In this document: positions 48,034 through 60,510 of the stretch, piece after piece
Numbering within the stretch: the stretch's first letter is position 1
How the letters are laid out: each line of letters opens with the position of its first letter
Source: Hymenobacter sp. APR13
Lineage (GTDB): Bacteria; Bacteroidota; Bacteroidia; Cytophagales; Hymenobacteraceae
Reading direction: 5' to 3'
NCBI RefSeq assembly: GCF_000737515.1
Contig: NZ_CP006587.1
Span: forward strand, 2,785,001-2,849,000
DNA: 64,000 nt
Notes under the pieces: generated by a model
Database searches by the model: none
Told to the model about the DNA's origin: nothing
What the model saw: only the letters and a program-made list of their open reading frames with translations
Program-made: the position numbers and the translations under genes

Positions 48034-48066
48034 AAAAACCCCGCGGGCAGAACCGGCGGGGTTTTT
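48034..48066 (+). terminator. Rho-independent terminator
   Basis: AAAAACCCCGC and GCGGGGTTTTT pair, 55 bases past the reductase stop. It marks the left border of the AT-richer island. Confidence 0.85.
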
Positions 48067-48149: not shown

Positions 48150-48374
48150 TCAGTAATTGTCGAATTGAGGCAAAACTGTTCCTACCAGCAGCCCGCCAAT
48201 CAGCACCGCAGTGCCCGACCGGATGGCCTGTTCTCCTGCGATATAAGACACCATTTCTCCATCAATCGTCTGGAAACCGGCGAGCGTAGTAGCAGCGCGC
48301 TGGTGAGTTGCCATTTCCAGAAGCAAGTAGCGCAATGCGTGTCCTTGCCGGCGTTTGAGAAGTAAGGAGGCCAT
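48150..48374 (-). CDS. Small membrane protein (tentative)
   Basis: A 74-residue reading frame. N-terminal half basic (SLLLKRRQGHALRYLLLEMA), then one hydrophobic segment (SGTAVLIGGLLVGTVLP, about 53-69). Codon use does not strongly favour either strand, and the opposite strand is also open, so this is tentative. It points the same way as the transporter genes, 309 bases after them. Confidence 0.4.
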   Translation of the reverse strand: MASLLLKRRQGHALRYLLLEMATHQRAATTLAGFQTIDGEMVSYIAGEQAIRSGTAVLIGGLLVGTVLPQFDNY

Positions 48375-48683
48375 AGATAGCCAGTAGAGAACAGCCTGTA
48401 GAAATGCTGAGAGAACTATCTAGAACCTTTAGCACATTACAAAACTACATGCCATGCCAAGGGCTGTAAAGGACAGTTGCTGTGTATTTGTGACTATGCT
48501 TTTTTGGCGCTATAATGGATCTAAGACCGACGCGAGTTAACGTGCTGTATATATTATAAATAATACATATTTTTTATAATCAGATCATTATAAATTATCG
48601 TGGCATTGAATCGAAGCTGGTTGTGCCCCATGATTTGTCTGAAATAAGCTCATATGTGACATTGGAAAGTCAGCTTCTTCGCT
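48375..48683. other. AT-rich non-coding gap
   Basis: 309 bases without a credible gene. The block 48546-48600 is almost pure A/T and holds ACATATTTTTTATAA (48565-48579), which occurs in reverse complement at 52935-52949 in the gap upstream of the repeat-peptide gene. GTAAAGGACA (about 48467) also recurs near 52899. Confidence 0.5.
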
Positions 48684-49673
48684 TTAATTGCTCTGGGCTT
48701 TGGTGGCTGGGAGCAATTGGCGTAAAGCAAGCGCAGTAAGCAACAGAGCTACTACAGGAAACACGATGAGCCACCAGTTCGTCGGAGCTAAACGGCTGGC
48801 TGCCAGTAGGCGTCCCCAGCTCGGTAGCTCCGGAGGCAGGCCCACTCCTAGAAAGGATAAGGTGGTTTCCAGGCCTATCAGGACCGCCAGATTCATGGGT
48901 AAGGATGCGCGTATTACTCGCCAACTGTTAGGGAGAATATGGCGCAGTAGCACGCTGTAAGTAGGCAGCCCAAGTGCCCGGGCAGCTTCCAGGTAAGGCA
49001 ACAGCCGAATTCTGCGGGTTTCGGCGCGCATCAGCCGGGCTGGTGTGGGCCACGAAACCACAACAAGAAGGGCGGTTATGGAACCTGCACTCGGCTCGAT
49101 GGAGGCAGCTACTATCAGCACCACTACTAGGCGTGGTAAGGAGGCCAGTGCTACAATAGCCATAGAAAACCACGTGTCAATGGGCAGTGCTATGGGACGC
49201 TTCAACCACTGGCGGCGCTCCAGAATTTTAGCCCCTACTGCACCAACACTCAGCAACCCTACAGGCCACCAGATAGCTGAGTAGCCGCTGGCGGGGGCCT
49301 GTAGCAGCAGGTACAGCAGCCCGATTATGCCACCAGTAAGCAGGACCGCAAAGGGCAGGCGCAGGCCGGCATTGCCCCAAAAGCCAGCTGCTCCTCCCAA
49401 AACTACACCCAGCAACGTGGCGAGCAGCGTAGCCGGTACACTCATTAGCAGCACCGTGCGGGCGCCATACACCAGGCTAACCAGTACATCATGGCCCTGA
49501 GGGTCGGTGCCCAGCGGGTGGCCGGGGGTGAGGGGAGGCGCACTTGTGTGCAGCAAGTCCGGAAAGGCAGATAGAGGTAGGAAGTCGGCGAGCAAGGCTG
49601 CTGCCAGCAGTAGCAGTAGCCAGCTCCAACTCAGGCCCTGGCCCCAGCGGTAGAAAAGTGGGAAGTGTGTCAC
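48684..49673 (-). CDS. ABC transporter permease, Dpp/OppC type
   Basis: A 329-residue inner-membrane permease of the peptide/nickel group. Motifs are HPLGTDPQGHDVLVSLVYGA (the usual OppC/DppC start region) and the ATPase-coupling EAA loop EAARALGLPTYSVLLRHILP, then LGVGLPPELPSWG. An extra pair of hydrophobic helices (LPFAVLLTGGIIGLLYLLL and following, about 105-150) interrupts the usual layout. It overlaps the DppB-like gene by four bases. No ATP-binding subunit is coded in the window. Confidence 0.88.
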   Translation of the reverse strand: MTHFPLFYRWGQGLSWSWLLLLLAAALLADFLPLSAFPDLLHTSAPPLTPGHPLGTDPQGHDVLVSLVYGARTVLLMSVPATLLATLLGVVLGGAAGFWGNAGLRLPFAVLLTGGIIGLLYLLLQAPASGYSAIWWPVGLLSVGAVGAKILERRQWLKRPIALPIDTWFSMAIVALASLPRLVVVLIVAASIEPSAGSITALLVVVSWPTPARLMRAETRRIRLLPYLEAARALGLPTYSVLLRHILPNSWRVIRASLPMNLAVLIGLETTLSFLGVGLPPELPSWGRLLAASRLAPTNWWLIVFPVVALLLTALALRQLLPATKAQSN

Positions 49674-50722
49674 GCAGCAGCCGGGCTAAGGCGTGGGTCG
49701 AGCAGGTAGTGCAGGCCATCTGCCACCCAGAGCGACAGTTGCCGCAACACTACAAGCAGCAGCACACCGCCTAACAATACCGGATAGTCGCGGGCGGTAG
49801 CGGCTTCGGCGAGCAGCCGTCCTACTCCCGGCAGGGCAAAAATAAGCTCCACCACCACCGAGCCAGCCAGGAGGTTAGGCAGCAGATCGGTCAGGAGCAC
49901 AAGGCTGGGTAGAGCGGCATTGCGCAGGGTATGGCGCCAGAGTACCTGCCGCTCCGACAGCCCTTTAGCGCGTGCAGCCAGTGCGTACGGCTGTTGCAAC
50001 TCATGGCGTAACGCAGACGCCAGCTGCACCGTCGGCTCGGCAATACCAGTCAGCACCAAGCTGGCTACCGGCAGCACCAGGTAGCTCAGATACGTCAAAG
50101 AACTCTCGGAATCAGTTTCTTCTGCCAGGCCATAGGCTGGAAAAAGCGCAAGAAAATCGGGGTTAGCTAACAGGAGCAGCAGCAACGATGCCACGGCAAA
50201 CAGCGGGAGCGTATCCAACGCAAACAGCACCGTTACAAGCGGCCCCGGTCGCCGGGCTTGGGCCAGCCCGATTGCAAGTGTCCCGCTAAGCACCAGCAGC
50301 AGCAGTAGCGCCAGCAGCGTAAGCGGCACAGTGGTGTATAATGCCTGGGTCAGCAGTGGCCCTACCGGTTCCTGGGTTTGGTAGGAGTTGCCTAACTCTC
50401 CGCACCAAAGCCCCACCAGCCATTGATGGTATTGGTTATGGCGGCCTTCCCATTGCCACCGTAGTGCCAGAAACTGCGTGGAAGGAGCGCTGAGCCGGGA
50501 AAAGTAGAACAGCGGATTGTCGAGCCCCAGCCGGTGGCGGGCCTGCTGTTGGGCCGCCTGAATCTGGCCGACGCTTGGAGCTGCGCCCGTAGGGATGCCG
50601 CCGAAACGGGCCAACAGTTGCTGCTCGTCGGGTAGCGTCCGGGTTAGTAGAAACAACAACGTGAGAATGCTCCACATCACCAGTAGCTGCCGGCCCAGCC
50701 GGATACCCAAGCGCCCGATCAT
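49670..50722 (-). CDS. ABC transporter permease, Dpp/OppB type
   Basis: A 350-residue permease, partner of the gene downstream. The N-terminus (LGIRLGRQLLVMWSILTLLF, LLTRTLP) and the EAA loop ALAARAKGLSERQVLWRHTL, RNAALPSLV and VVVELIFALPGVGRLL are those of DppB/OppB. It starts four bases after the binding-protein stop and overlaps the next permease by four, so the three genes are tightly coupled. Confidence 0.9.
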   Translation of the reverse strand: MIGRLGIRLGRQLLVMWSILTLLFLLTRTLPDEQQLLARFGGIPTGAAPSVGQIQAAQQQARHRLGLDNPLFYFSRLSAPSTQFLALRWQWEGRHNQYHQWLVGLWCGELGNSYQTQEPVGPLLTQALYTTVPLTLLALLLLLVLSGTLAIGLAQARRPGPLVTVLFALDTLPLFAVASLLLLLLANPDFLALFPAYGLAEETDSESSLTYLSYLVLPVASLVLTGIAEPTVQLASALRHELQQPYALAARAKGLSERQVLWRHTLRNAALPSLVLLTDLLPNLLAGSVVVELIFALPGVGRLLAEAATARDYPVLLGGVLLLVVLRQLSLWVADGLHYLLDPRLSPAAA

Positions 50723-50726
50723 AGGT

Positions 50727-52457
50727 TTACCGGGCCGGAAGCGCAGCCAGCTTCAGCTGGAGAGCATTGTAGCCGGGCCGCACGCTGGTGGCCTGCACCG
50801 GCTGCAGCCGGCGGGAAGCTACCACCCGGTTGCGCGAAAAGTATAGCACTGTGAGCGGAGCCTGCTGCTGCAGGAGTCGCTGAAAACGGCGCAGCAGCTT
50901 ATTGCGCATCTCTAGGCGGTTTGCCGTAGCTATAGCCTCTATCAAGTGGTCGGCGTCTGGCGAGCTAAACCGGGTGAAATTGAAGAGGCCGATACCCTGT
51001 GAGTGTAGGATAGGCTTGAAATTGTACGTAAACGGATTGCCTGATATCGTCCGAACGAACACCTCGACTTCGCCGGCAACGAGTTGCTGCTGGAGCAAAC
51101 TGTTTTCGGTCGGACGTAGCTGCACCTTGATGCCTAGTCCGGTAGCCGCCTCGCGGAACTGCAGGGCCACTGTTTCGTGGGCCGCGGCTTCGCTGCGGTA
51201 GCTGATGCTGAGCGCCAATGGGCCCGTGCGGCCTCTCCACCAGGTTCCGTCGGGGTGTTTCTGCCAGCCCGCCTGTTGCAGCAAAGCAGCAGCCTGCGTG
51301 GGAGAAAATTGGGGAACTGCCAGGCTGTCGTTGAAAGCCTGCTTATCCCGGGGTGAAATCATACTTGGGCTTCGGTAAGCAAGCCCGGGTTGGGTAGCTT
51401 GAATCAGACGTGGAGCATCAAACAGCAACGTAAGTGCGCGGCGCGTAACGGCATCGTGCAAAAAAGCATGCTGCGTATTAAAGCCCGCCATCGTCGACTC
51501 GTAGGTGTCGGCTGTAGCGAAGGTCAGGCGGCTGCTGTCGGCCGAGTTCTTCAATTGCGTAAATATGCGGGCCGAAGGCATCGGGTACAAGTCCAGATTT
51601 CCTCTCCGTAAGGCCAGCGTAGCAGTACCATCATCCGGGATGACGCGGAATTCGAGTTGTGCTGCCTGTGCCTGAAGCCAGCTGGCTGGCCGGACAAGGC
51701 GGTTGGCCCACCAATTGGGTTTGCGCTGAAGACGCAAATACTGATTCGGGCGCCAAGCGGCTACTGTATAAGGTCCGCAGCCTGGCAGGCGCTCTGGGTG
51801 CTGGCCGAGCTGTGCCTGGCGGTAACGGGCCGCAAAAGCCAAGATAGCCGGATATTGCCGGATGGCCGCAGCGGTATCCGTTTTCAGCAATGAAAAAGGC
51901 ACAGCGCGTAGTTGCCCGGCCGGATCCAGCGCGTATTCCGGCAGGATGGAATAGTCGCCGGAGGACAGCACCATATCCAGCGAAGAGCCGGCGCGTACCA
52001 GCGTGAAGCGCCGCGGATCTGATGCATCTAGCCGGATGTCGAGAATGTCACCGTACTGGAGGCGGGAAAACTCGGTTGGGAGCCCAGGACAATTCAGCAG
52101 ACGGAGCGTGAAGGCCACGTCCTGTGCCAATACGGGCGTGCCATTATCCCAGGTAGCCTCTGGCCGAAGGCGGTAGTGTAGCAGCGTAAGTGGCCCCTGT
52201 TGCTCGATGCGTGGCAGCGAGTCGGCTAGCCACGGTACTATCTGCTGCTTGTCGGGCTCGCCCATAAGCAAGCTGCAGTGCAAGAGGTTGATAACTTCCG
52301 TGGCCTGTGGGGTAAGAGCCGTCAGCAGGTCGAGCGAGCGTGGATCGTCGGCCCAGCGAATACGAATGGCCGCCGATGGCTTGGCTGCCGAGTTGCAGCC
52401 TACCAATCCGTACCAGCCTGTAAGCAATAGCAATACCCCGGACAGTAAAGACTTCAT
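50727..52457 (-). CDS. Oligopeptide-type substrate-binding lipoprotein (SBP_bac_5)
   Basis: A 576-residue extracytoplasmic binding protein. The signal ends in lipobox GLVGC (Cys21). The fold motifs are LHYRLRPEATWDNGTPVLAQ, DVAFTLRLLN, ILPEYALDPAG, GCGPYTVAAW, YLRLQRKPNWW and TRRALTLLFDAPRLIQ, as in OppA/DppA. These proteins bind peptides and sometimes heme or nickel chelates. The ATG at 52455-52457 stands 90 bases after the stop of the repeat-peptide gene on the same strand. AAACTTTG (about 52470) is a poor -7 match, so co-transcription with the peptide gene is likely. Lower GC than most of the window. Confidence 0.92.
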   Translation of the reverse strand: MKSLLSGVLLLLTGWYGLVGCNSAAKPSAAIRIRWADDPRSLDLLTALTPQATEVINLLHCSLLMGEPDKQQIVPWLADSLPRIEQQGPLTLLHYRLRPEATWDNGTPVLAQDVAFTLRLLNCPGLPTEFSRLQYGDILDIRLDASDPRRFTLVRAGSSLDMVLSSGDYSILPEYALDPAGQLRAVPFSLLKTDTAAAIRQYPAILAFAARYRQAQLGQHPERLPGCGPYTVAAWRPNQYLRLQRKPNWWANRLVRPASWLQAQAAQLEFRVIPDDGTATLALRRGNLDLYPMPSARIFTQLKNSADSSRLTFATADTYESTMAGFNTQHAFLHDAVTRRALTLLFDAPRLIQATQPGLAYRSPSMISPRDKQAFNDSLAVPQFSPTQAAALLQQAGWQKHPDGTWWRGRTGPLALSISYRSEAAAHETVALQFREAATGLGIKVQLRPTENSLLQQQLVAGEVEVFVRTISGNPFTYNFKPILHSQGIGLFNFTRFSSPDADHLIEAIATANRLEMRNKLLRRFQRLLQQQAPLTVLYFSRNRVVASRRLQPVQATSVRPGYNALQLKLAALPAR

Positions 52458-52547
52458 GTGCGCATCGCAGGCAAAGTTTCCCGGCAGGCAAGTTAGCCAG
52501 GAAATTTGTGGCAGCGACTACCGCACACGCACAGGCTTGGCTGCAGC

Positions 52548-52829
52548 CTAGCGGCCCGTCCAGCCACCAGCACCATGTTCAGCATCGATACCCGTCCAGC
52601 CACCAGCACCGTGGTCAGCATCGATACCAGTCCATCCGCCGGCACCGTGGTCAGCATCAATACCAGTCCAGCCGCCGGCACCATGTTCTGCATCAACACC
52701 TGTCCAGCCACCGGCACCGTGGTCGGCAGCCATCGTCATTGTAGGAGAATCAGTGGAACGGATGCCGCCGGAGAAGTCAGCGGTGAAGCTCGAAAACTGG
52801 AGCAGGGCGAGGGCGATTAATTCTAGCAT
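52548..52829 (-). CDS. Repeat-peptide precursor, (A-D/E-HGAGGWTG-I/V-D)x5
   Basis: A 93-residue protein with no family that I know. Residues 1-12 are hydrophobic (MLELIALALLQF), then a linker (SSFTADFSGGIRSTDSPTMT) containing a Gly-Gly at 21-22. From residue 35 to the end there are four complete 12-residue units and a fifth ending in Arg: 35-46, 47-58, 59-70, 71-82, 83-93. Each carries HGAGGWTG. At DNA level the 36-base units differ nearly only at third positions (GCC/GCT, GGT/GGC/GGA, ACA/ACT/ACG, ATT/ATC, GAC/CAC against GAA/CAT), which shows selection on the protein. It could be the precursor of a small secreted peptide. Next gene: peptide-binding lipoprotein. CACCTTTG (52876-52869) is a near -7 match 40 bases upstream. 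Confidence 0.75.
   Translation of the reverse strand: MLELIALALLQFSSFTADFSGGIRSTDSPTMTMAADHGAGGWTGVDAEHGAGGWTGIDADHGAGGWTGIDADHGAGGWTGIDAEHGAGGWTGR
52551..52727 (-). repeat. Tandem 36-bp coding repeat, 5 units
   Basis: Five head-to-tail units (the last 33 bases) inside the peptide gene. No spacers separate them. Confidence 0.85.
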
Positions 52830-53198
52830 GGCGCTTGGCTTTTGTGTGTTTCAAGTGATTGACTGACACAAAGGTGGGCGCTGGAGCAAGCCACGTAAAG
52901 GACACTATTAGCGTAAAAGTGATTGGTATAATATTTATAAAAAATATGTTTAATTACATTAAATTTCCTGTCATAAGCCTGCTGCATTGTGATTAGCAAG
53001 CTTGAGCGGGCTGAAATCTGTGCCTAAACTCAGGTGGAGTGTGACATTTTACGATTAAAAAAACATATTTCACCACTACAAATGTCCAACAGGATAGTAG
53101 TGACAGTAAAGGAAAAACTGTGTTGTTTTGTGACAGGAATTTTATGACAAGCCCAATCTCAAAAACAACGATAATAGCCTGTATAGGGCGTTTTGCTA
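52830..53198. other. AT-rich divergent regulatory gap
   Basis: 369 bases between the divergent peptide and helical-protein genes. It holds an AT block (52925-52970), the 15-mer TTATAAAAAATATGT (52935-52949), and several TGACA words (GTGACATTTT near 53040, GTGACAGTAAAGG near 53099, GTGACAGGAATTTT near 53131, ATGACAAG near 53144). No perfect TAnnTTTG was found. Shared operators for the two transcripts are possible. Confidence 0.5.
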
Positions 53199-54728
53199 AT
53201 GGATGAACTGATAAATTTAGCTCGTATTGTGACAGACAGGAAGCTGAAAGTGCTTCCGTTGCTTGACTTTACGGCCCGTCATTCCTCCAATAAAGAAATG
53301 CAGCTGGTGCAACAATTGGTTGATGGACAGCCAAAGTCACAGCAGCAAATTGTTAAAACCTTATACGGTAAAGCTGATCGGACGCGGTACGCAGCGTTTC
53401 GGAAACTGAAGTCGAGGGTGCAGCAGAAGCTGCTGAATCATCTGTATTTCCTGGATGAGACGGACACGCGCCATCTGGTGTCCCGCCGTTACGAATATCA
53501 GGTGCTGAACCTCTACATGCAGGTGAGCGTGCTGTATTCAGAAGGGGAACTGAAGGCTGCCGAATCGTTGAGTAGAAAGGGGCAGCGTTTGGCGCAAACC
53601 CATGAAATGACGCAATATGTGGTGCTGTTTGGCCAACTGCTACGTGGCATATATGCAGATATTCGAATGCCGGCCCGCTACCAGGCCAATAAGCTGCTAT
53701 TGGAGAAAAGCCAAAAGACGCTGGCAATAGAAGAAGAAGCGTCCCAATTGTATTGGGACGTAAAAGGAACAGTTGCTTACAATGTGCGCACCCGTCGTTC
53801 CATTCTGGATAAGATGGACGGGGTGGTACAGAAACTGGCAGAGTTCTACAAATCCGCGGGCACATTCATTACTTTCCATTACCACTACCGAGTACAGCTT
53901 ATTCAGCAGGAGTTGCTGGGAAATTACCAGGAGATAATCAGGATTACCGGGGCCACGGCTCGGCTGCTGGAGCAAGGCAAAATCAACAATAAGCGTTTTG
54001 ACAAGCGCTTTAATGCGTATATGAGTGTATACGCACACTTTCGCAGCCGGAAAGTAGAGAATGGCTTACGGCTGGCAGAGCTACACGCTAAAGAGTTTCA
54101 CCATTCCTCGGTGAACTGGCTGTATTACTTGGAAATCTATCTGCTGCTGGCGATTCATGCCGGGCAGTATGGCGAGGCACTGGAACTGCTGGCTACTGCC
54201 CGCAAAAACGTGTATTTCGATAAGCAGCAGGCTGTGGCTCAGCAGCGCTGGGACCTGTACATGGTGTATCTGCAGTTTGTGCGGCCGGAACTGTCGCCGG
54301 TGCGCATGCGCAACTTCACCACGTTCGTGCAAACCGTACCTGACCACAGCCGCGACAAGCAGGGCTACAACGTTGCGGTGCTGATTCTGCAGTTTCTGCA
54401 CTTCCTGCGCCAGCGCGACCTAGAAAACATTCTTACTCGACTCGAAAGCCTACGCAAATATCAGCAGCGGTATTTGCGGGAAACCGGCAACGTGCGAAGC
54501 CAACTGTTTTTCCGGCTGCTAGCAATCGTCGTTAAGGAAGAATTCAACCCAACAACCAGCCGCAAAAAGGGAGAAGCGGTACTGAAGAAGCTACAGGCCT
54601 CGCCGCCACCCGGTGAGGCCTTCGCTGAAATCGAAATTGTGCCTTACGAACAGCTGTGGCAGATTACGCTGGATATTCTGCAAACCACGGCGCTCTACAA
54701 CGCCGAGCAAGACAAAAAGCTGGTGTAG
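53199..54728 (+). CDS. Large helical-repeat protein, possible peptide receptor or regulator
   Basis: A 509-residue soluble protein, all-helical by eye. An N-terminal module (about 25-85: NKEMQLVQQLVDGQPKSQQQ, IVKTLYGKADRTRYAAFRKL, KSRVQQKLLNHLYFLDETD) looks like a small helical, perhaps DNA- or protein-binding, domain. The rest is a TPR-like array (YSEGELKAAESLSRKGQRLA; ELLGNYQEIIRITGATARLL; LLLAIHAGQYGEALELLATA). I know similar proteins in Bacteroidota only as hypothetical. ATG at 53199; a TTG two codons upstream is also possible. GC is near 50%, lower than housekeeping genes here. Divergent from the repeat-peptide operon. Confidence 0.8.
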   Translation: MDELINLARIVTDRKLKVLPLLDFTARHSSNKEMQLVQQLVDGQPKSQQQIVKTLYGKADRTRYAAFRKLKSRVQQKLLNHLYFLDETDTRHLVSRRYEYQVLNLYMQVSVLYSEGELKAAESLSRKGQRLAQTHEMTQYVVLFGQLLRGIYADIRMPARYQANKLLLEKSQKTLAIEEEASQLYWDVKGTVAYNVRTRRSILDKMDGVVQKLAEFYKSAGTFITFHYHYRVQLIQQELLGNYQEIIRITGATARLLEQGKINNKRFDKRFNAYMSVYAHFRSRKVENGLRLAELHAKEFHHSSVNWLYYLEIYLLLAIHAGQYGEALELLATARKNVYFDKQQAVAQQRWDLYMVYLQFVRPELSPVRMRNFTTFVQTVPDHSRDKQGYNVAVLILQFLHFLRQRDLENILTRLESLRKYQQRYLRETGNVRSQLFFRLLAIVVKEEFNPTTSRKKGEAVLKKLQASPPPGEAFAEIEIVPYEQLWQITLDILQTTALYNAEQDKKLV

Positions 54729-56078: not shown

Positions 56079-56792
56079 CTAGAATTTGTTGAGCCGCTGA
56101 AATACGTCGCGCGTGTAAGTCTGGCCGATGGGAATATGTTTGCCATCAATGAGGATGGAGTTGTCCTCGATGGCCTGAACGCGTTTCAGATTGACGATAA
56201 ATGAGCGGTGTACCCGCACGAAAAGGCCCGCAGGAAATTTCTCTTCCACGGCCTTCATGGTGCTGTACACGATGAGTTTGCTCTGGCCTGTTACCACGTG
56301 TACGTAGTCGCCAAGGGCTTCCACGTAGCGCACCTCGTCAAAGATGACTTTCACCAGCTTGGTATCCACCTTCATGAAGGTAAAATCGGCGGTTTCGGGG
56401 GGCGTAGCGGGCTCAGGGCGGGCAGTCGCCAGCTCTAGGGCGCGCTGTGAGGCTTTCAGGAACCGGGCATAGCTGATGGGCTTTACCAGATAGTCGACCA
56501 CATCGTGCTCGAAGGCCTCGACGGCGTACTGCTGGCTGCTGGTAATGAGCACTACCAGGGGTGGGTTCTGCAGCGTGCGGAGCAGGTCGAGGCCCGACAT
56601 GAGGGGCATTTCCACGTCCAGAAACAGCAAATCCACGGACTGGGTGCGCAGAACTTCCGCCGCCTGGACGGCACTGGTGCAGGAGCCGGCTGAGGTCAGA
56701 AAGTCGGTGCTGGCAATACAGTTTTCAACAATCTGAATGGAAAGCGGGTCATCGTCGATAACCAAGCAGCGGAGCGGGGAGAGGTGCGGCAT
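56079..56792 (-). CDS. LytTR family response regulator
   Basis: A 237-residue regulator. Receiver domain at about 8-120 (CLVIDDDPLSIQIVENCI, phospho-Asp in FLDVEMPLMSG, and VVDYLVKPISYARF). A LytTR DNA-binding domain follows at about 138-235 (VDTKLVKVIFDEVRYVEALG, FVRVHRSFIVNLKRVQAIE). Located 52 bases downstream of a hybrid kinase, its likely partner, though the kinase has its own receiver and HPt. TACCTTTG (56805-56798) ends six bases before the only ATG, so the gene may be expressed on its own from a leaderless mRNA. Confidence 0.92.
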   Translation of the reverse strand: MPHLSPLRCLVIDDDPLSIQIVENCIASTDFLTSAGSCTSAVQAAEVLRTQSVDLLFLDVEMPLMSGLDLLRTLQNPPLVVLITSSQQYAVEAFEHDVVDYLVKPISYARFLKASQRALELATARPEPATPPETADFTFMKVDTKLVKVIFDEVRYVEALGDYVHVVTGQSKLIVYSTMKAVEEKFPAGLFVRVHRSFIVNLKRVQAIEDNSILIDGKHIPIGQTYTRDVFQRLNKF

Positions 56793-56797
56793 ATACT

Positions 56798-56805
56798 CAA
56801 AGGTA
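56798..56805 (-). promoter_or_regulatory. Putative -7 element of the LytTR gene
   Basis: TACCTTTG on the minus strand, perfect match, ending 6 bases before the ATG. It lies between the kinase stop (56845) and the regulator start. Confidence 0.55.
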
Positions 56806-56844
56806 AACTATCCCCTGAAAAAACCACACCGCATCCACCAAGCT

Positions 56845-59800
56845 TCAACTGACCATAATACGGGCCTGAATAAGCGGATACAAGTCGGCCAGCTGCAGCT
56901 CCAGATACTCTAGGCTGGCGGCCAGCTGGTCGGGGGGGGCGTGCTGCCGGGCCTGCTGCTCGAGCTGCTCCAGCGTGCCGTGGAGCGCTGGCACCCCGAA
57001 ATACGCCACCTGGCCTTTCAGCTTGTGCGCCGTGCGGGCCAGGGCGTCGGGGCTGGCGGCCTCAAACGCCTGGCAGAGCTGCTGCTGGAGCTGCGGCCCC
57101 TGGCTGAGAAACGTCCGGATGATTTGGCCGATAAAGGCTTCGTTGCCGCTCGCCAGCTCTTCCAGCAACGTCCAGTCGAGGGCGGCGGCCGCAGTAGCAG
57201 GCGCCAGTTCGGCTGGTGCGGCTGCCGGTGCTTCGGCCGGGGCGGTGGCTTCGGTGGTAGGGCGGCGGGTGTGCTGGGCGAGCCGGGCGAAAAGCACGGC
57301 CGGGTCGAAGGGCTTGGCCAGCGTGTCGTTCATGCCGGCTTCCAGGGCCAGGGCGCGGTCTTCAGGCAGCGCCGATGCCGTGAGGCCGATAATCGGGAAC
57401 TGGTCGGCATCGGGAAAGAGCATGCGCAGTTGCCGGGAAGCCTCGTAGCCGTCCATTTCGGGCATCTGCACGTCCATGAGCACGGCATCGAAAGCCTGAG
57501 TGGCGGCGGCTTCCACGGCCAGGCGGCCGTTGGCGGCTATGGTTACCTGCACGTTCCAGGCTTCGAGAGTTTTGCGGGCTACCAGCTGGTTGAGCTCGTT
57601 GTCTTCGGCCACCAGCACATGCAGCGCCGGCTCGAAGCGGCCGACGGCCAGGCTGGCTTCGGCGGGCACGGTGGCGGGGTCGGCGGCTTCGTAGGAGATG
57701 CTGAAGTGGAAGGTGGAGCCCACGCCGTCCTGGCTTTCCACGCCCAGCTGGCCGCCGTGCAGCTCCACGAGGTTGCGGGCGATGCTCAGCCCCAGTCCGG
57801 TGCCGCCGAACTGGCGCGTGGTGCTGGTGTTGGCTTGGGAGAAATCCTCGAAAATGGCATCCAGCTTATCGGCCGGAATGCCGATGCCGGTGTCCTGCAC
57901 CGCGAAATGCACCGCGGGCCGGGCCGTACCGGTGGCTTCTTCCGGCGCCGATACGCGCAGCGTGACGCCGCCGCGGGTGGTGAACTTGATGGCATTGCCG
58001 ACCAAGTTGACCAGCACCTGATTAAGCCGCACCGGGTCGCCGAAGACGGCGGCGGGCACGCCGGGCCCGATTTCCAGCCGGAAGTAGAGCTGCTTGCTTT
58101 CGGTGGCGAAGCGGAACATACTGGCCACGCGCCGCAGCAACTCCGGCAGCCGGAAGGCGGTGTGCTCCAGCGTCATCTTGCCGGCTTCAATCTTGGAGCT
58201 GTCGAGGATGTCGTTGATGATGACCAGCAGGTTCTGCGACGACGACTGCACGGCTTCCAGGTACTCGCTCTGCTCGCCGGTGAGGGGCGTCTGGCGCAGC
58301 AGGTGCGAGAGGCCGATTACGGCATTCATGGGCGTGCGGATTTCGTGGCTCATGTTGGCCAGAAACTGGGCTTTGGCTTTGCGCGAGGCCTCAGCCACGT
58401 CGCGGGCCACGGTCAGCTCGGCGTTCATCTCCTCGATGTGGGCGTTCTGGTGGCGCAGCTCCTGGGTTCGTTCGCGCACGGTAGTTTCCAGCTGCAGCTT
58501 CTGCTGCCGCAGTACCGCCTCGCGCCCCCGCACAAACGCCCAGATGCCGGCCCCGGCCGCCAGCACGCTCAGGGCCGCAAACCACCACGTGCGCCAGAAC
58601 GGCGTGGCCACTTCAAAGCGCACAACCACCGGCGCACTCCACGCGCCCTGCTCGCCGCGCCGGGCGCGCGCCTCAAACTGGTAGGCACCAGCGCCCAGGC
58701 GGCTGAATCGCGCTTCGGTAACGCCGGACGGCTTGCTCCACACCGAATCGTAGCCGCGCAGGCGGTACTGGTACTGCACGGCAGCGGCTTGCGACAGGCT
58801 GATGCCCCGGAACCGGAACGCCAGCCGGTGCTCCGTGGCCGAGAGCTGGCCCAACGAGTCGGTGGCTGCGGGGGCGCCATCTACCTCGGTCTGCACCACC
58901 AGCACGGCCGGCGGAGGCAGCTCGGGCTGCCACTGGCGGGTGCTTACGCCCACGGTCACCATACCGGTGCGGGTAAGCACCAGCAGCTGGTTGGAAGCGA
59001 ATAGAGCCGTGGCCTGGGGCAGGCAGTCGCGCACCCACGGGTTGTCGGGCGCTGCCAGCGGATAGACGCGGCCGGTGGCGGGGTGGAAGGCGCTGAGCTG
59101 GTTGCGGTGCACGAGCAGCAGGTAGTCGGGGCCGTGCTCGTAGCCGGAGTACATGTGATGGCGGCCCCATATGCTCTGAAACGAGGTCAGCGCGTAGCAA
59201 TAGTCGGAGGCCAGGCCTTGGGCGGTGGTGTATTGCCGGAACCGGCCGTTTTCGTAGCAGAACAGCCCGCTGCCTTCCGTGCCAATCCAGACGCGGCCGG
59301 CCGGGTCAGTGGCCAGGGCGGTGGCGTTGAGGCCGCCCGGCACCAGCCGGAAATGCCGGAACCGGCCCTGTTCCCACACGGCCAGCCCGGTGCCGTGCGT
59401 GGCCACCCAGACCCGCCCGGCGGCGTCGCAGAGCAAGGCGTAGATGGTGTTGTGCAGCAGGCCGTTGGCCGTGGTGTAGTGCGTGGTGGGCTGGGCGGGG
59501 TCGGCGGGGCGCCGATACACGCCGTCCGATTCGGTGCCCACCCACAAGGTGCCGTCGGGGGCGCGGGCCAGGGCCGTGACGCGTAGCGTGCTGGGCAGGC
59601 CAGCCACCGGCTGCAGCAGCTGGCCGCGGTGCTGCCATACGCCCCGCCCGCGGGTGCCCAGCCAGCTTTTGATAGAATCACGAGAGTCTTTACCGATGGC
59701 TAGTGGCTCTTCGACTACCACGGTAATCGGGACCTTGAGGGCCGGCAGACGGAGTGCTTTCAGCCACTCAGTAGAGTAGGGCTGCGTCAGTCGGCCGTCG

Positions 59801-60510
59801 GCGGTGCCCGACAAGCCCAGCACTGGCCCGCCCGCCGCCGACCAGGTGGTGCCGGCTGGTTGCGGATAGGCTTTGATATGACGGTCGGTGAAGCGCCACA
59901 GGCCGTGGCCGGCGGTGCCCAGCCACAAATTGCCTTCCCGGTCGATTTCCGTGCAGCGGATGACAGCCCCGGCCGGCAGCTGCGCCTGGTACTGGCGTTG
60001 CAGATCGGCTATCCACGCAGAATCGGGCGGAATCTTTTCGCCCTTCTCTTTCGGAAAGATGCGTGTGAAACCTTTCGGGGTTAGCATCGATTGTTCGCCC
60101 TGGTAGTGCAACACAACCAGTGGACTCGCGCTGTCGTCGGTTTTGAGGCCCACCACAAAATCCTCGGCCAACCCGTCTTTGGTGGTGTAGGTTTTGAACT
60201 CCGTGCCATCGTAGCGCACGAGGCCCTCGGCGGTGCCAATCCAGAGGTAGCCCTGCCGGTCCTGCACCACAGTGTAGATGAAGGGCTGCGGCAACCCCTC
60301 AGCGGCTCCGAAGTGCTTAACGAATTGCTGGCCTGCTGACTGTCCCGGCTGCGCCCAACTGCGTGGCGCGCTCAACAGCAGCACCAGCATCAGCCCCAGA
60401 CGAAACAGCAGAAGAAACGGGCGCAACACAGGCAGCTGGCAGAGAAAGTAGACAATCGGGAAGGAAGTGGCTGGCAAGGTAGCGGCTGGCGGGCAGCCTG
60501 CCGCGGGCAT
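56845..60510 (-). CDS. Hybrid two-component sensor kinase with propeller sensor, receiver and HPt domains
   Basis: A 1221-residue membrane kinase. Signal peptide/anchor to about 53; periplasmic beta-propeller (Reg_prop repeats such as GYLWIGTAEGLVRYDG, GNLWLGTAGHGLWRF, GTLWVGTESDGVYR, GRVWIGTEGSGLF) to about 530; Y_Y_Y domain at about 560-635; one helix at 641-660; coiled coil; HisKA with phospho-His722 (SHEIRTP); HATPase with GGTGLGLSIA (902-911); receiver with Asp1013; an Ala/Pro linker; HPt with His1162 (AHKLKG). All phosphorelay residues are intact. The ATG at 60508-60510 is listed, but TACCTTGC at 60481-60474 and the signal-peptide shape would suit a TTG start at 60426. Upstream of the LytTR gene. 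Confidence 0.93.
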   Translation of the reverse strand: MPAAGCPPAATLPATSFPIVYFLCQLPVLRPFLLLFRLGLMLVLLLSAPRSWAQPGQSAGQQFVKHFGAAEGLPQPFIYTVVQDRQGYLWIGTAEGLVRYDGTEFKTYTTKDGLAEDFVVGLKTDDSASPLVVLHYQGEQSMLTPKGFTRIFPKEKGEKIPPDSAWIADLQRQYQAQLPAGAVIRCTEIDREGNLWLGTAGHGLWRFTDRHIKAYPQPAGTTWSAAGGPVLGLSGTADGRLTQPYSTEWLKALRLPALKVPITVVVEEPLAIGKDSRDSIKSWLGTRGRGVWQHRGQLLQPVAGLPSTLRVTALARAPDGTLWVGTESDGVYRRPADPAQPTTHYTTANGLLHNTIYALLCDAAGRVWVATHGTGLAVWEQGRFRHFRLVPGGLNATALATDPAGRVWIGTEGSGLFCYENGRFRQYTTAQGLASDYCYALTSFQSIWGRHHMYSGYEHGPDYLLLVHRNQLSAFHPATGRVYPLAAPDNPWVRDCLPQATALFASNQLLVLTRTGMVTVGVSTRQWQPELPPPAVLVVQTEVDGAPAATDSLGQLSATEHRLAFRFRGISLSQAAAVQYQYRLRGYDSVWSKPSGVTEARFSRLGAGAYQFEARARRGEQGAWSAPVVVRFEVATPFWRTWWFAALSVLAAGAGIWAFVRGREAVLRQQKLQLETTVRERTQELRHQNAHIEEMNAELTVARDVAEASRKAKAQFLANMSHEIRTPMNAVIGLSHLLRQTPLTGEQSEYLEAVQSSSQNLLVIINDILDSSKIEAGKMTLEHTAFRLPELLRRVASMFRFATESKQLYFRLEIGPGVPAAVFGDPVRLNQVLVNLVGNAIKFTTRGGVTLRVSAPEEATGTARPAVHFAVQDTGIGIPADKLDAIFEDFSQANTSTTRQFGGTGLGLSIARNLVELHGGQLGVESQDGVGSTFHFSISYEAADPATVPAEASLAVGRFEPALHVLVAEDNELNQLVARKTLEAWNVQVTIAANGRLAVEAAATQAFDAVLMDVQMPEMDGYEASRQLRMLFPDADQFPIIGLTASALPEDRALALEAGMNDTLAKPFDPAVLFARLAQHTRRPTTEATAPAEAPAAAPAELAPATAAAALDWTLLEELASGNEAFIGQIIRTFLSQGPQLQQQLCQAFEAASPDALARTAHKLKGQVAYFGVPALHGTLEQLEQQARQHAPPDQLAASLEYLELQLADLYPLIQARIMVS

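What the first reader, a model, noticed from the sequence alone, without database searches (positions are those of the whole stretch)
48684..54728. Candidate peptide-signalling module: repeat-peptide precursor, peptide importer and divergent helical protein
Seen: a 93-residue repeat peptide gene; 90 bases behind it on the same strand an oligopeptide-binding lipoprotein; then two Dpp/Opp-type permeases with 4-base gap and overlap; divergent across a 369-base AT-rich gap, a 509-residue all-helical TPR-like protein. Known: RRNPP systems of Gram-positives use a secreted precursor, re-import through Opp, and a TPR-type receptor, often coded side by side. Inference: this cluster may be an equivalent in Bacteroidota, in which a processed HGAGGWTG-type peptide is taken up and sensed. 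Weak points: no ATPase subunit, no exporter and no clear DNA-binding domain are in the window.
Basis: partly seen in the sequence, partly recalled or inferred. Interest (0 to 1): 0.88.

Follow-up and report, generated by a model that had tools for sequence, protein, structure and literature searches.

The report
RRNPP-like peptide signalling in Bacteroidota
A Hymenobacter gene cluster looks like a complete peptide-messenger system (a repeat-built signal precursor, its own importer and a Rap-like receptor), a kind of bacterial communication so far described in Gram-positive bacteria, and receptor and precursor pairs like it recur across Bacteroidota.

Summary

The unit is: helical receptor <-> [repeat precursor - binding lipoprotein - permease - permease - new ORF74]. 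In 36 same-genus genomes receptor and binding protein are both present in 31 and both absent in 5. Of 79 GTDB loci, 77 have a divergent precursor and 68 have binding protein and both permeases.

Precursors share a hydrophobic leader and carry 1-18 copies of a Gly/Trp core. Codons of the core are strongly constrained (crude pN/pS 0.05). Single-copy relatives end at the core (...GTGGTGTWDDSN), like Phr-type propeptides.

Some distant receptors in the class also have divergent leader-type ORFs (8 of 21 examined, 0.5 expected). Release, import and binding are inferred. A DNA-binding domain and an exporter are unproven, and no sequence homology to RRNPPA receptors was found.

The parts
53199..54728 (+). 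Receptor candidate: 509-aa all-helical TPR-like superhelix, Rap/NprR/AimR-like by predicted structure
52548..52829 (-). Signal precursor: K/R-free hydrophobic leader (MLELIALALLQFSSF), spacer, five HGAGGWTG-type cores
   Evidence: precursor ORF in 77 of 79 GTDB loci; crude core pN/pS 0.05
50727..52457 (-). Peptide-binding lipoprotein (SBP_bac_5), a second SBP_bac_5 gene tied to this locus
   Evidence: PF00496; two SBP_bac_5 matches in the own genome, one in locus-lacking G004, G016, G027, G030, none in G036 (82% complete)
49670..50722 (-). Permease 1, Opp/Dpp type
   Evidence: PF00528; Opp2B/Opp1B-like, below cut-off
48684..49673 (-). Permease 2, Opp/Dpp type
   Evidence: PF00528; Opp4C-like, below cut-off
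48150..48374 (-). ORF74: further conserved gene, 74 aa, motif F.TIDG..VP....GE.ALR.GTA.LVGGLLVG, function unknown
   Evidence: 36 of 79 GTDB loci by single-query tblastn, always same strand and 4.6-5.6 kb left of the receptor start; 334 proteins at E <= 1e-3 among 7994 scored; no NCBIfam match, no precomputed Pfam domain on the 120 listed relatives
53079..53133 (-). Promoter-like element P1 (TCAC-N17-CCTTT-N25-TTTG), reads toward the precursor
52869..52922 (-). Promoter-like element P2, same architecture, 39 nt before the precursor start
48440..48493 (-). Promoter-like element P3, same architecture, upstream of ORF74
   Evidence: also in G002, G007, G009, G023, G032
53040..53047 (-). Lone conserved ATGTCACA box between P1 and P2
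   Evidence: alignment of 32 intergenic regions; box positions listed
48034..48066 (.). Conserved hairpin flanked by A and T runs, likely bidirectional terminator closing the unit
   Evidence: blastn block and its sequence

Best explanation
This is a cell-to-cell (or self-sensing) peptide signalling system that works like the Rap/NprR/AimR (RRNPPA) systems of Bacillota. Steps. (1) The precursor is made from promoters P1/P2 (elements seen; activity inferred). (2) Its hydrophobic leader takes it to or through the membrane, and proteases release several copies of an 8-10-residue Gly/Trp peptide such as HGAGGWTG (inferred from repeat boundaries and from single-copy relatives that end at the core). 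(3) The dedicated binding lipoprotein and two permeases, powered by the genome's single unlinked fused Opp-type ATPase, bring the peptide into the cytoplasm (parts shown, pairing inferred). (4) The peptide binds the concave face of the 509-aa TPR-like receptor (fold predicted, binding inferred), which then changes transcription of its own locus through the GTCAC/CCTTT elements, giving a positive or negative feedback loop that includes importer and ORF74 (element shown, regulator inferred). In Hymenobacter the core has been multiplied inside one precursor; elsewhere in the family it mostly occurs once, at the C terminus.
For: Co-occurrence and linkage: 31 both, 5 neither, 0 one only in 36 same-genus genomes; precursor in 77 of 79 GTDB loci; precursor, binding protein and permeases in 12 of 12 loci fetched from 12 of the 18 matched genomes of other genera of the family. 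Selection: pS 0.494, pN 0.025 between core units of one precursor, crude count. Fold: ranks 1-6 Rap, 17 of 50 rows RRNPPA by title. Core-receptor covariation in 69 loci: partial Mantel r 0.25, p 0.0005, given permease-1 and binding-protein distances; core against binding protein given permease 1 and receptor r 0.01, p 0.38. ATPase in trans; second SBP. Element locus-specific: 3 of 3 hits in 5.01 Mb; 41 of 74 hits in 32 locus-carrying genomes lie in the locus, the reversed control gives 26 in the same genomes. Class-level: divergent leader-type ORF at 8 of 21 receptor genes examined, expected 0.5, p 2e-8.
Confidence: 0.8

Rival explanations
1. The precursor is a multicore antimicrobial or RiPP-like peptide; the helical protein and importer serve immunity or peptide recycling.
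For: Leader plus repeated cores resembles multicore RiPP precursors (recalled); core varies between species.
Against: No modification or dedicated export gene is among the six conserved genes; wider neighbours and unlinked genes were not scanned for such enzymes. Receptor has no signal peptide by eye and is Rap-like in model; cores within one precursor are mostly kept identical and vary with the receptor.
Confidence: 0.08
2. The Gly/Trp(/His) peptide is a metal-binding scavenger taken up by a Nik/Opp-like transporter, and the helical protein is a metal-responsive regulator.
For: NCBIfam matches of the binding protein and permease 1 include NikA, CntA and Opp2B (nickel) models; some cores start with His.
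Against: All those matches are far below cut-off (NikA 76 of 393 bits); His is missing from many cores, e.g. GGSGGWG, IGGSGWE, GGTGTWD; class-level precursors have other C termini.
Confidence: 0.05
3. The unit is an intracellular regulatory loop: the small protein, uncleaved, binds and titrates the helical regulator, and the importer takes up unrelated peptides.
For: No exporter known; leader is not a canonical signal peptide; leader conserved.
Against: Copy number 1-18 of a near-identical core and variable spacers suit cleavage; importer genes kept in the unit in 12 of 12 loci of other family genera.
Confidence: 0.07

Closest known systems
Rap-Phr systems with tandem pheromones (Rap3T-Phr3T, Rap105-Phr105; PMC11343458, abstract and outline seen)
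   Same: TPR receptor fold (8rsu, 8rtc, 8rte among ranks 2-5); adjacent precursor; several pheromone copies in one propeptide
   Different: Bacillus subtilis phages; here Bacteroidota, up to 18 copies, divergent precursor gene, importer genes in the unit, leader mostly without K/R
RRNPPA family as a whole (Rap, Rgg, NprR, PlcR, PrgX, AimR, ComR; PMC9765709, passages seen)
   Same: receptor plus propeptide pair; C-terminal pheromone; up to six identical copies; receptors without propeptide (compare L153, L190); neighbouring multiple propeptide genes (compare L201, L260, L261)
   Different: described in Firmicutes; no sequence relation found here; canonical Sec leader and N-terminal HTH not shown here
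AimR (arbitrium)
   Different: kept near rmlD in 51 of 66 long GTDB loci, so a stable chromosomal locus; phage genes were not searched for

Membership tests
RRNPPA quorum-sensing systems | Receptor with TPR-like superhelix | tested here: met
RRNPPA quorum-sensing systems | Detectable sequence homology to a known RRNPPA receptor | tested here: not met
   no RRNPPA family in the Pfam scan of 73 members; profile against PDB gives only 9lnt, E 0.18
RRNPPA quorum-sensing systems | N-terminal HTH (or Rap-type helical bundle) | tested here: inconclusive
RRNPPA quorum-sensing systems | Small propeptide gene next to the receptor, pheromone at its C terminus | tested here: met
   77 of 79 loci; 12 of 12 in other family genera; that the core is the pheromone is inferred
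RRNPPA quorum-sensing systems | Propeptide exported by Sec or PptAB | tested here: inconclusive
   hydrophobic leader present but mostly without K/R; exporter not identified
RRNPPA quorum-sensing systems | Re-import by an oligopeptide permease | tested here: inconclusive
   SBP and two permeases in the unit, fused ATPase unlinked; transport not testable
RRNPPA quorum-sensing systems | Direct binding of mature peptide changes receptor activity | not testable with these tools
   needs purified protein and peptide
RiPP gene cluster | Modification enzyme encoded with the precursor | tested here: not met
   none among the six conserved genes; wider neighbours and unlinked enzymes not tested
Nickel/opine-metallophore uptake (Nik, Cnt) | Binding protein reaches the curated model cut-off | tested here: not met
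   NikA 76.2 of 393 bits, CntA 31.3 of 800 bits

The most novel reading that the evidence does not exclude
Bacteroidota have their own widespread class of RRNPP-like two-gene peptide signalling: a roughly 500-aa helical receptor and a divergent short precursor (leader M..LI.ALL..LG, diverse C-terminal signal). Hymenobacteraceae added a dedicated importer, a locus-specific promoter element and tandem amplification of a Gly-Trp signal; other families use other signals (e.g. ...GGVVVVTGVGV, ...NIIWETNEK, ...SDEDGW).
Probability: 0.6. Interest if true: 0.93.

Novelty: new variant of a known kind. Interest (0 to 1): 0.88.

Why it matters
Intracellular peptide quorum sensing is presented as a Gram-positive system; PMC10075063 (passages) applied its detector to Firmicutes genomes and viruses, and a 2026 review (PMC13220807, passages) places RRNPP in Gram-positive bacteria. 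A Rap-like receptor with a conserved multi-copy signal precursor and its own importer in Bacteroidota would open a peptide language in a Gram-negative phylum to direct test, with candidate signals readable from genomes (77 precursors from GTDB contigs here). It would also let import specificity and sensing specificity be studied apart, since the core varies with the receptor rather than with the binding protein.

Tried and rejected

Results against: the strict leader filter fails for 26 of 81 genus-level receptor genes; by the leaders, 14 of these loci have GTG starts, which the script left out, and three have K in the leader; L153 and L190 have no precursor found by eye either. Of 32 locus-carrying genomes, six (G003, G010, G015, G021, G033, G035) have element hits only outside the locus and three (G011, G028, G029) none. 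Two of the 8 order-level leader hits (L218, L226) look accidental. G041 holds a repeat-like match (L066, residues 36-91 of the precursor, near a contig end) without receptor or SBP_bac_5; not followed. Precursor cores are not uniform everywhere: L182 has three different ones. Class-level loci were mostly the stronger rows, not a random draw.
Full report
Observation. Pfam assigns SBP_bac_5 and two BPD_transp_1 proteins; precursor and helical protein match no family above cut-off. The window lies in a 5.01-Mb genome whose near relatives are Hymenobacter; the helical protein is single-copy there.

Linkage. In 36 same-genus genomes the helical protein and the binding protein at E <= 1e-20 are both present in 31 and both absent in 5 (G004, G016, G027, G030, G036; the last is 82% complete). 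Reading the DNA around them shows one leader-expression match in each of 32 intergenic regions, starting 348-380 nt from the receptor start codon, with GTG starts in three. These 79 overlap with the genomes. The two without precursor, L153 and L190, also lack the importer genes.

Precursor. Leaders look like MLELIALALLQFSSF, mostly without K or R (exceptions L133, L157, L159), then a Ser/Thr/Ala/Pro-rich spacer and 1 to 18 cores (21 of 78 have one). Cores within a precursor are mostly identical (exceptions such as L182); between species they differ (HGAGGWT, GGSGGWG, IGGSGWE, TGGTGWG, GGTGTWD). Between core units of the same precursor that differ in DNA, pS is 0.494 and pN 0.025 by a crude count, which says the peptide is translated and constrained. 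Last repeats end shortly before the stop...GWEND...GWGHD...GWTGR, and single-copy precursors in Adhaeribacter end ...GTGGTGTWDDSN or ...GGTGSWDDNN. This is the layout of Phr-type propeptides with a C-terminal pheromone, amplified in Hymenobacter. L201 has three precursor genes in tandem.

Covariation. In 69 loci with receptor, binding protein, permease 1 and precursor, core distance follows receptor distance (r 0.65). Given permease and binding-protein distances the partial correlation with the receptor stays 0.25 (p 0.0005), while that with the binding protein given permease and receptor is 0.01 (p 0.38). Shared descent is only partly removed; given the permease alone the leader also tracks the receptor (0.22, core 0.34). 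The sign is that the receptor, not the importer, reads the core.

Importer energy. The genome has one ORF with two oligo_HPY matches, a 736-aa fused ATPase, unlinked; two matches are found in 37 of 37 genomes of the genus, own included, also in those lacking the locus. SBP_bac_5 matches number two in the own genome and in most locus carriers (three in G010, G017, G018, some of them pieces), one in G004, G016, G027, G030 and none in G036. A shared ATPase serving a second, dedicated binding protein is the simplest reading; it is an inference.

Regulatory region. The 32 divergent regions align. Two blocks read toward the precursor, each (G)TCA(C) - 17-18 nt - CCTTT - 24-26 nt - TTTG, resembling a Bacteroidetes promoter (recalled) with an upstream box, and a lone ATGTCACA lies between. 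The element TCACN{17,18}CCTTTN{24,26}TTTG occurs three times in the own genome, all here: P1, P2, and P3 downstream of permease 2; the reversed control finds none. Over the own and 31 locus-carrying genomes there are 74 hits, 41 in the locus; the 33 elsewhere are close to the 26 of the reversed control; the five locus-lacking genomes have 3 (sorted by hand). Nine of the 32 have no hit inside the locus. P3 precedes ORF74, a conserved gene found in 36 of 79 loci at the same place, and also in L207 and L214 of other family genera and in Adhaeribacter L198 and L201, with 334 database relatives. So the locus looks self-regulating, and ORF74 is a candidate output.

Breadth. The receptor family is in 87 of 292 sampled genomes of the order (27 of 109 genera) and 48 of 396 of the class sample (33 of 198 genera; 43 of the 48 outside the order). 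A strict filter for a divergent ATG ORF with a K/R-free hydrophobic start within 600 nt finds 55 of 81 receptor genes (79 GTDB loci), 10 of 15 (other family genera), 8 of 33 (order; two doubtful) and 8 of 21 (20 stretches from 18 of the 43 genomes outside the order, mostly the stronger rows), against 0.024 expected per receptor from the rest of the same DNA (p 1e-68, 2e-13, 1e-6, 2e-8; related loci are not independent). Examples are MMELIIAILIALGS...GGVVVVTGVGV, and MATLLAILLSLNLITS...NIIWETNEK in two tandem copies. Their signals differ. Importer genes were not searched at class-level loci; among order-level L216-L242 only L228 had permease matches.

Literature. RRNPPA systems are described in Firmicutes (PMC9765709, passages; PMC10075063, passages: Firmicutes genomes and viruses analysed); tandem pheromones in Rap systems in PMC11343458 (abstract and outline). 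A 2026 review (PMC13220807, passages) has no word beginning with Bacteroid and places RRNPP in Gram-positive bacteria. The listings of searches showed no report of such a system in Bacteroidota; several list only the first 15-20 of more papers, and the library holds open-licence PMC papers only.

Judgement. That this is a peptide signalling unit working like RRNPPA is likely (0.8). Which way the receptor acts, how the precursor leaves the cell, and what ORF74 does are open. Membership in RRNPPA by descent is not claimed: sequence homology was tested and not met.

Noticed in passing
window 48150-48374: ORF74, a small conserved protein gene with its own copy of the locus promoter element; no known family.
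   Followed up: partly
L201; L260, L261: Two or three tandem near-identical precursor genes beside one receptor (Adhaeribacter soli; class-level genomes).
   Followed up: partly
L153, L190: Receptor genes without precursor or importer, in species that also have another locus with them (H. piscis L149, H. cyanobacteriorum L188); possible eavesdroppers.
   Followed up: partly
L203, L205, L207: Tandem duplicated receptor genes behind one precursor in a sister genus (also G171, G300, G309).
   Followed up: no
L230, L231, L233, L234, L235 (G125): One genome with five receptor paralogues, three with a precursor-like ORF of their own (...VGESDWDTAG, ...VGDANWNGD, ...IGGGDWA).
   Followed up: partly
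L228 (G103): Order-level receptor with a precursor-like ORF and permease matches downstream on the other strand.
   Followed up: no
L099, L163, L169: Two receptor genes in one locus in opposite directions; in L099 the binding protein sits next to the receptor without a precursor.
   Followed up: no
L066 (G041): Repeat-like match to the precursor's cores near a contig end in a genome without receptor or SBP_bac_5 match.
   Followed up: no
L219, L221, L222: A 145-aa protein gene sits where the precursor would be in a more distant receptor subfamily.
   Followed up: no
window 56079-60510: LytTR-type response regulator and a hybrid histidine kinase follow the unit (by eye); a match to the regulator is found in 45 of 66 long GTDB loci.
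   Followed up: partly
window 52560-52611: Sub-threshold Rfam match RF00523 (E 0.66) over the repeats, taken as chance.
   Followed up: no
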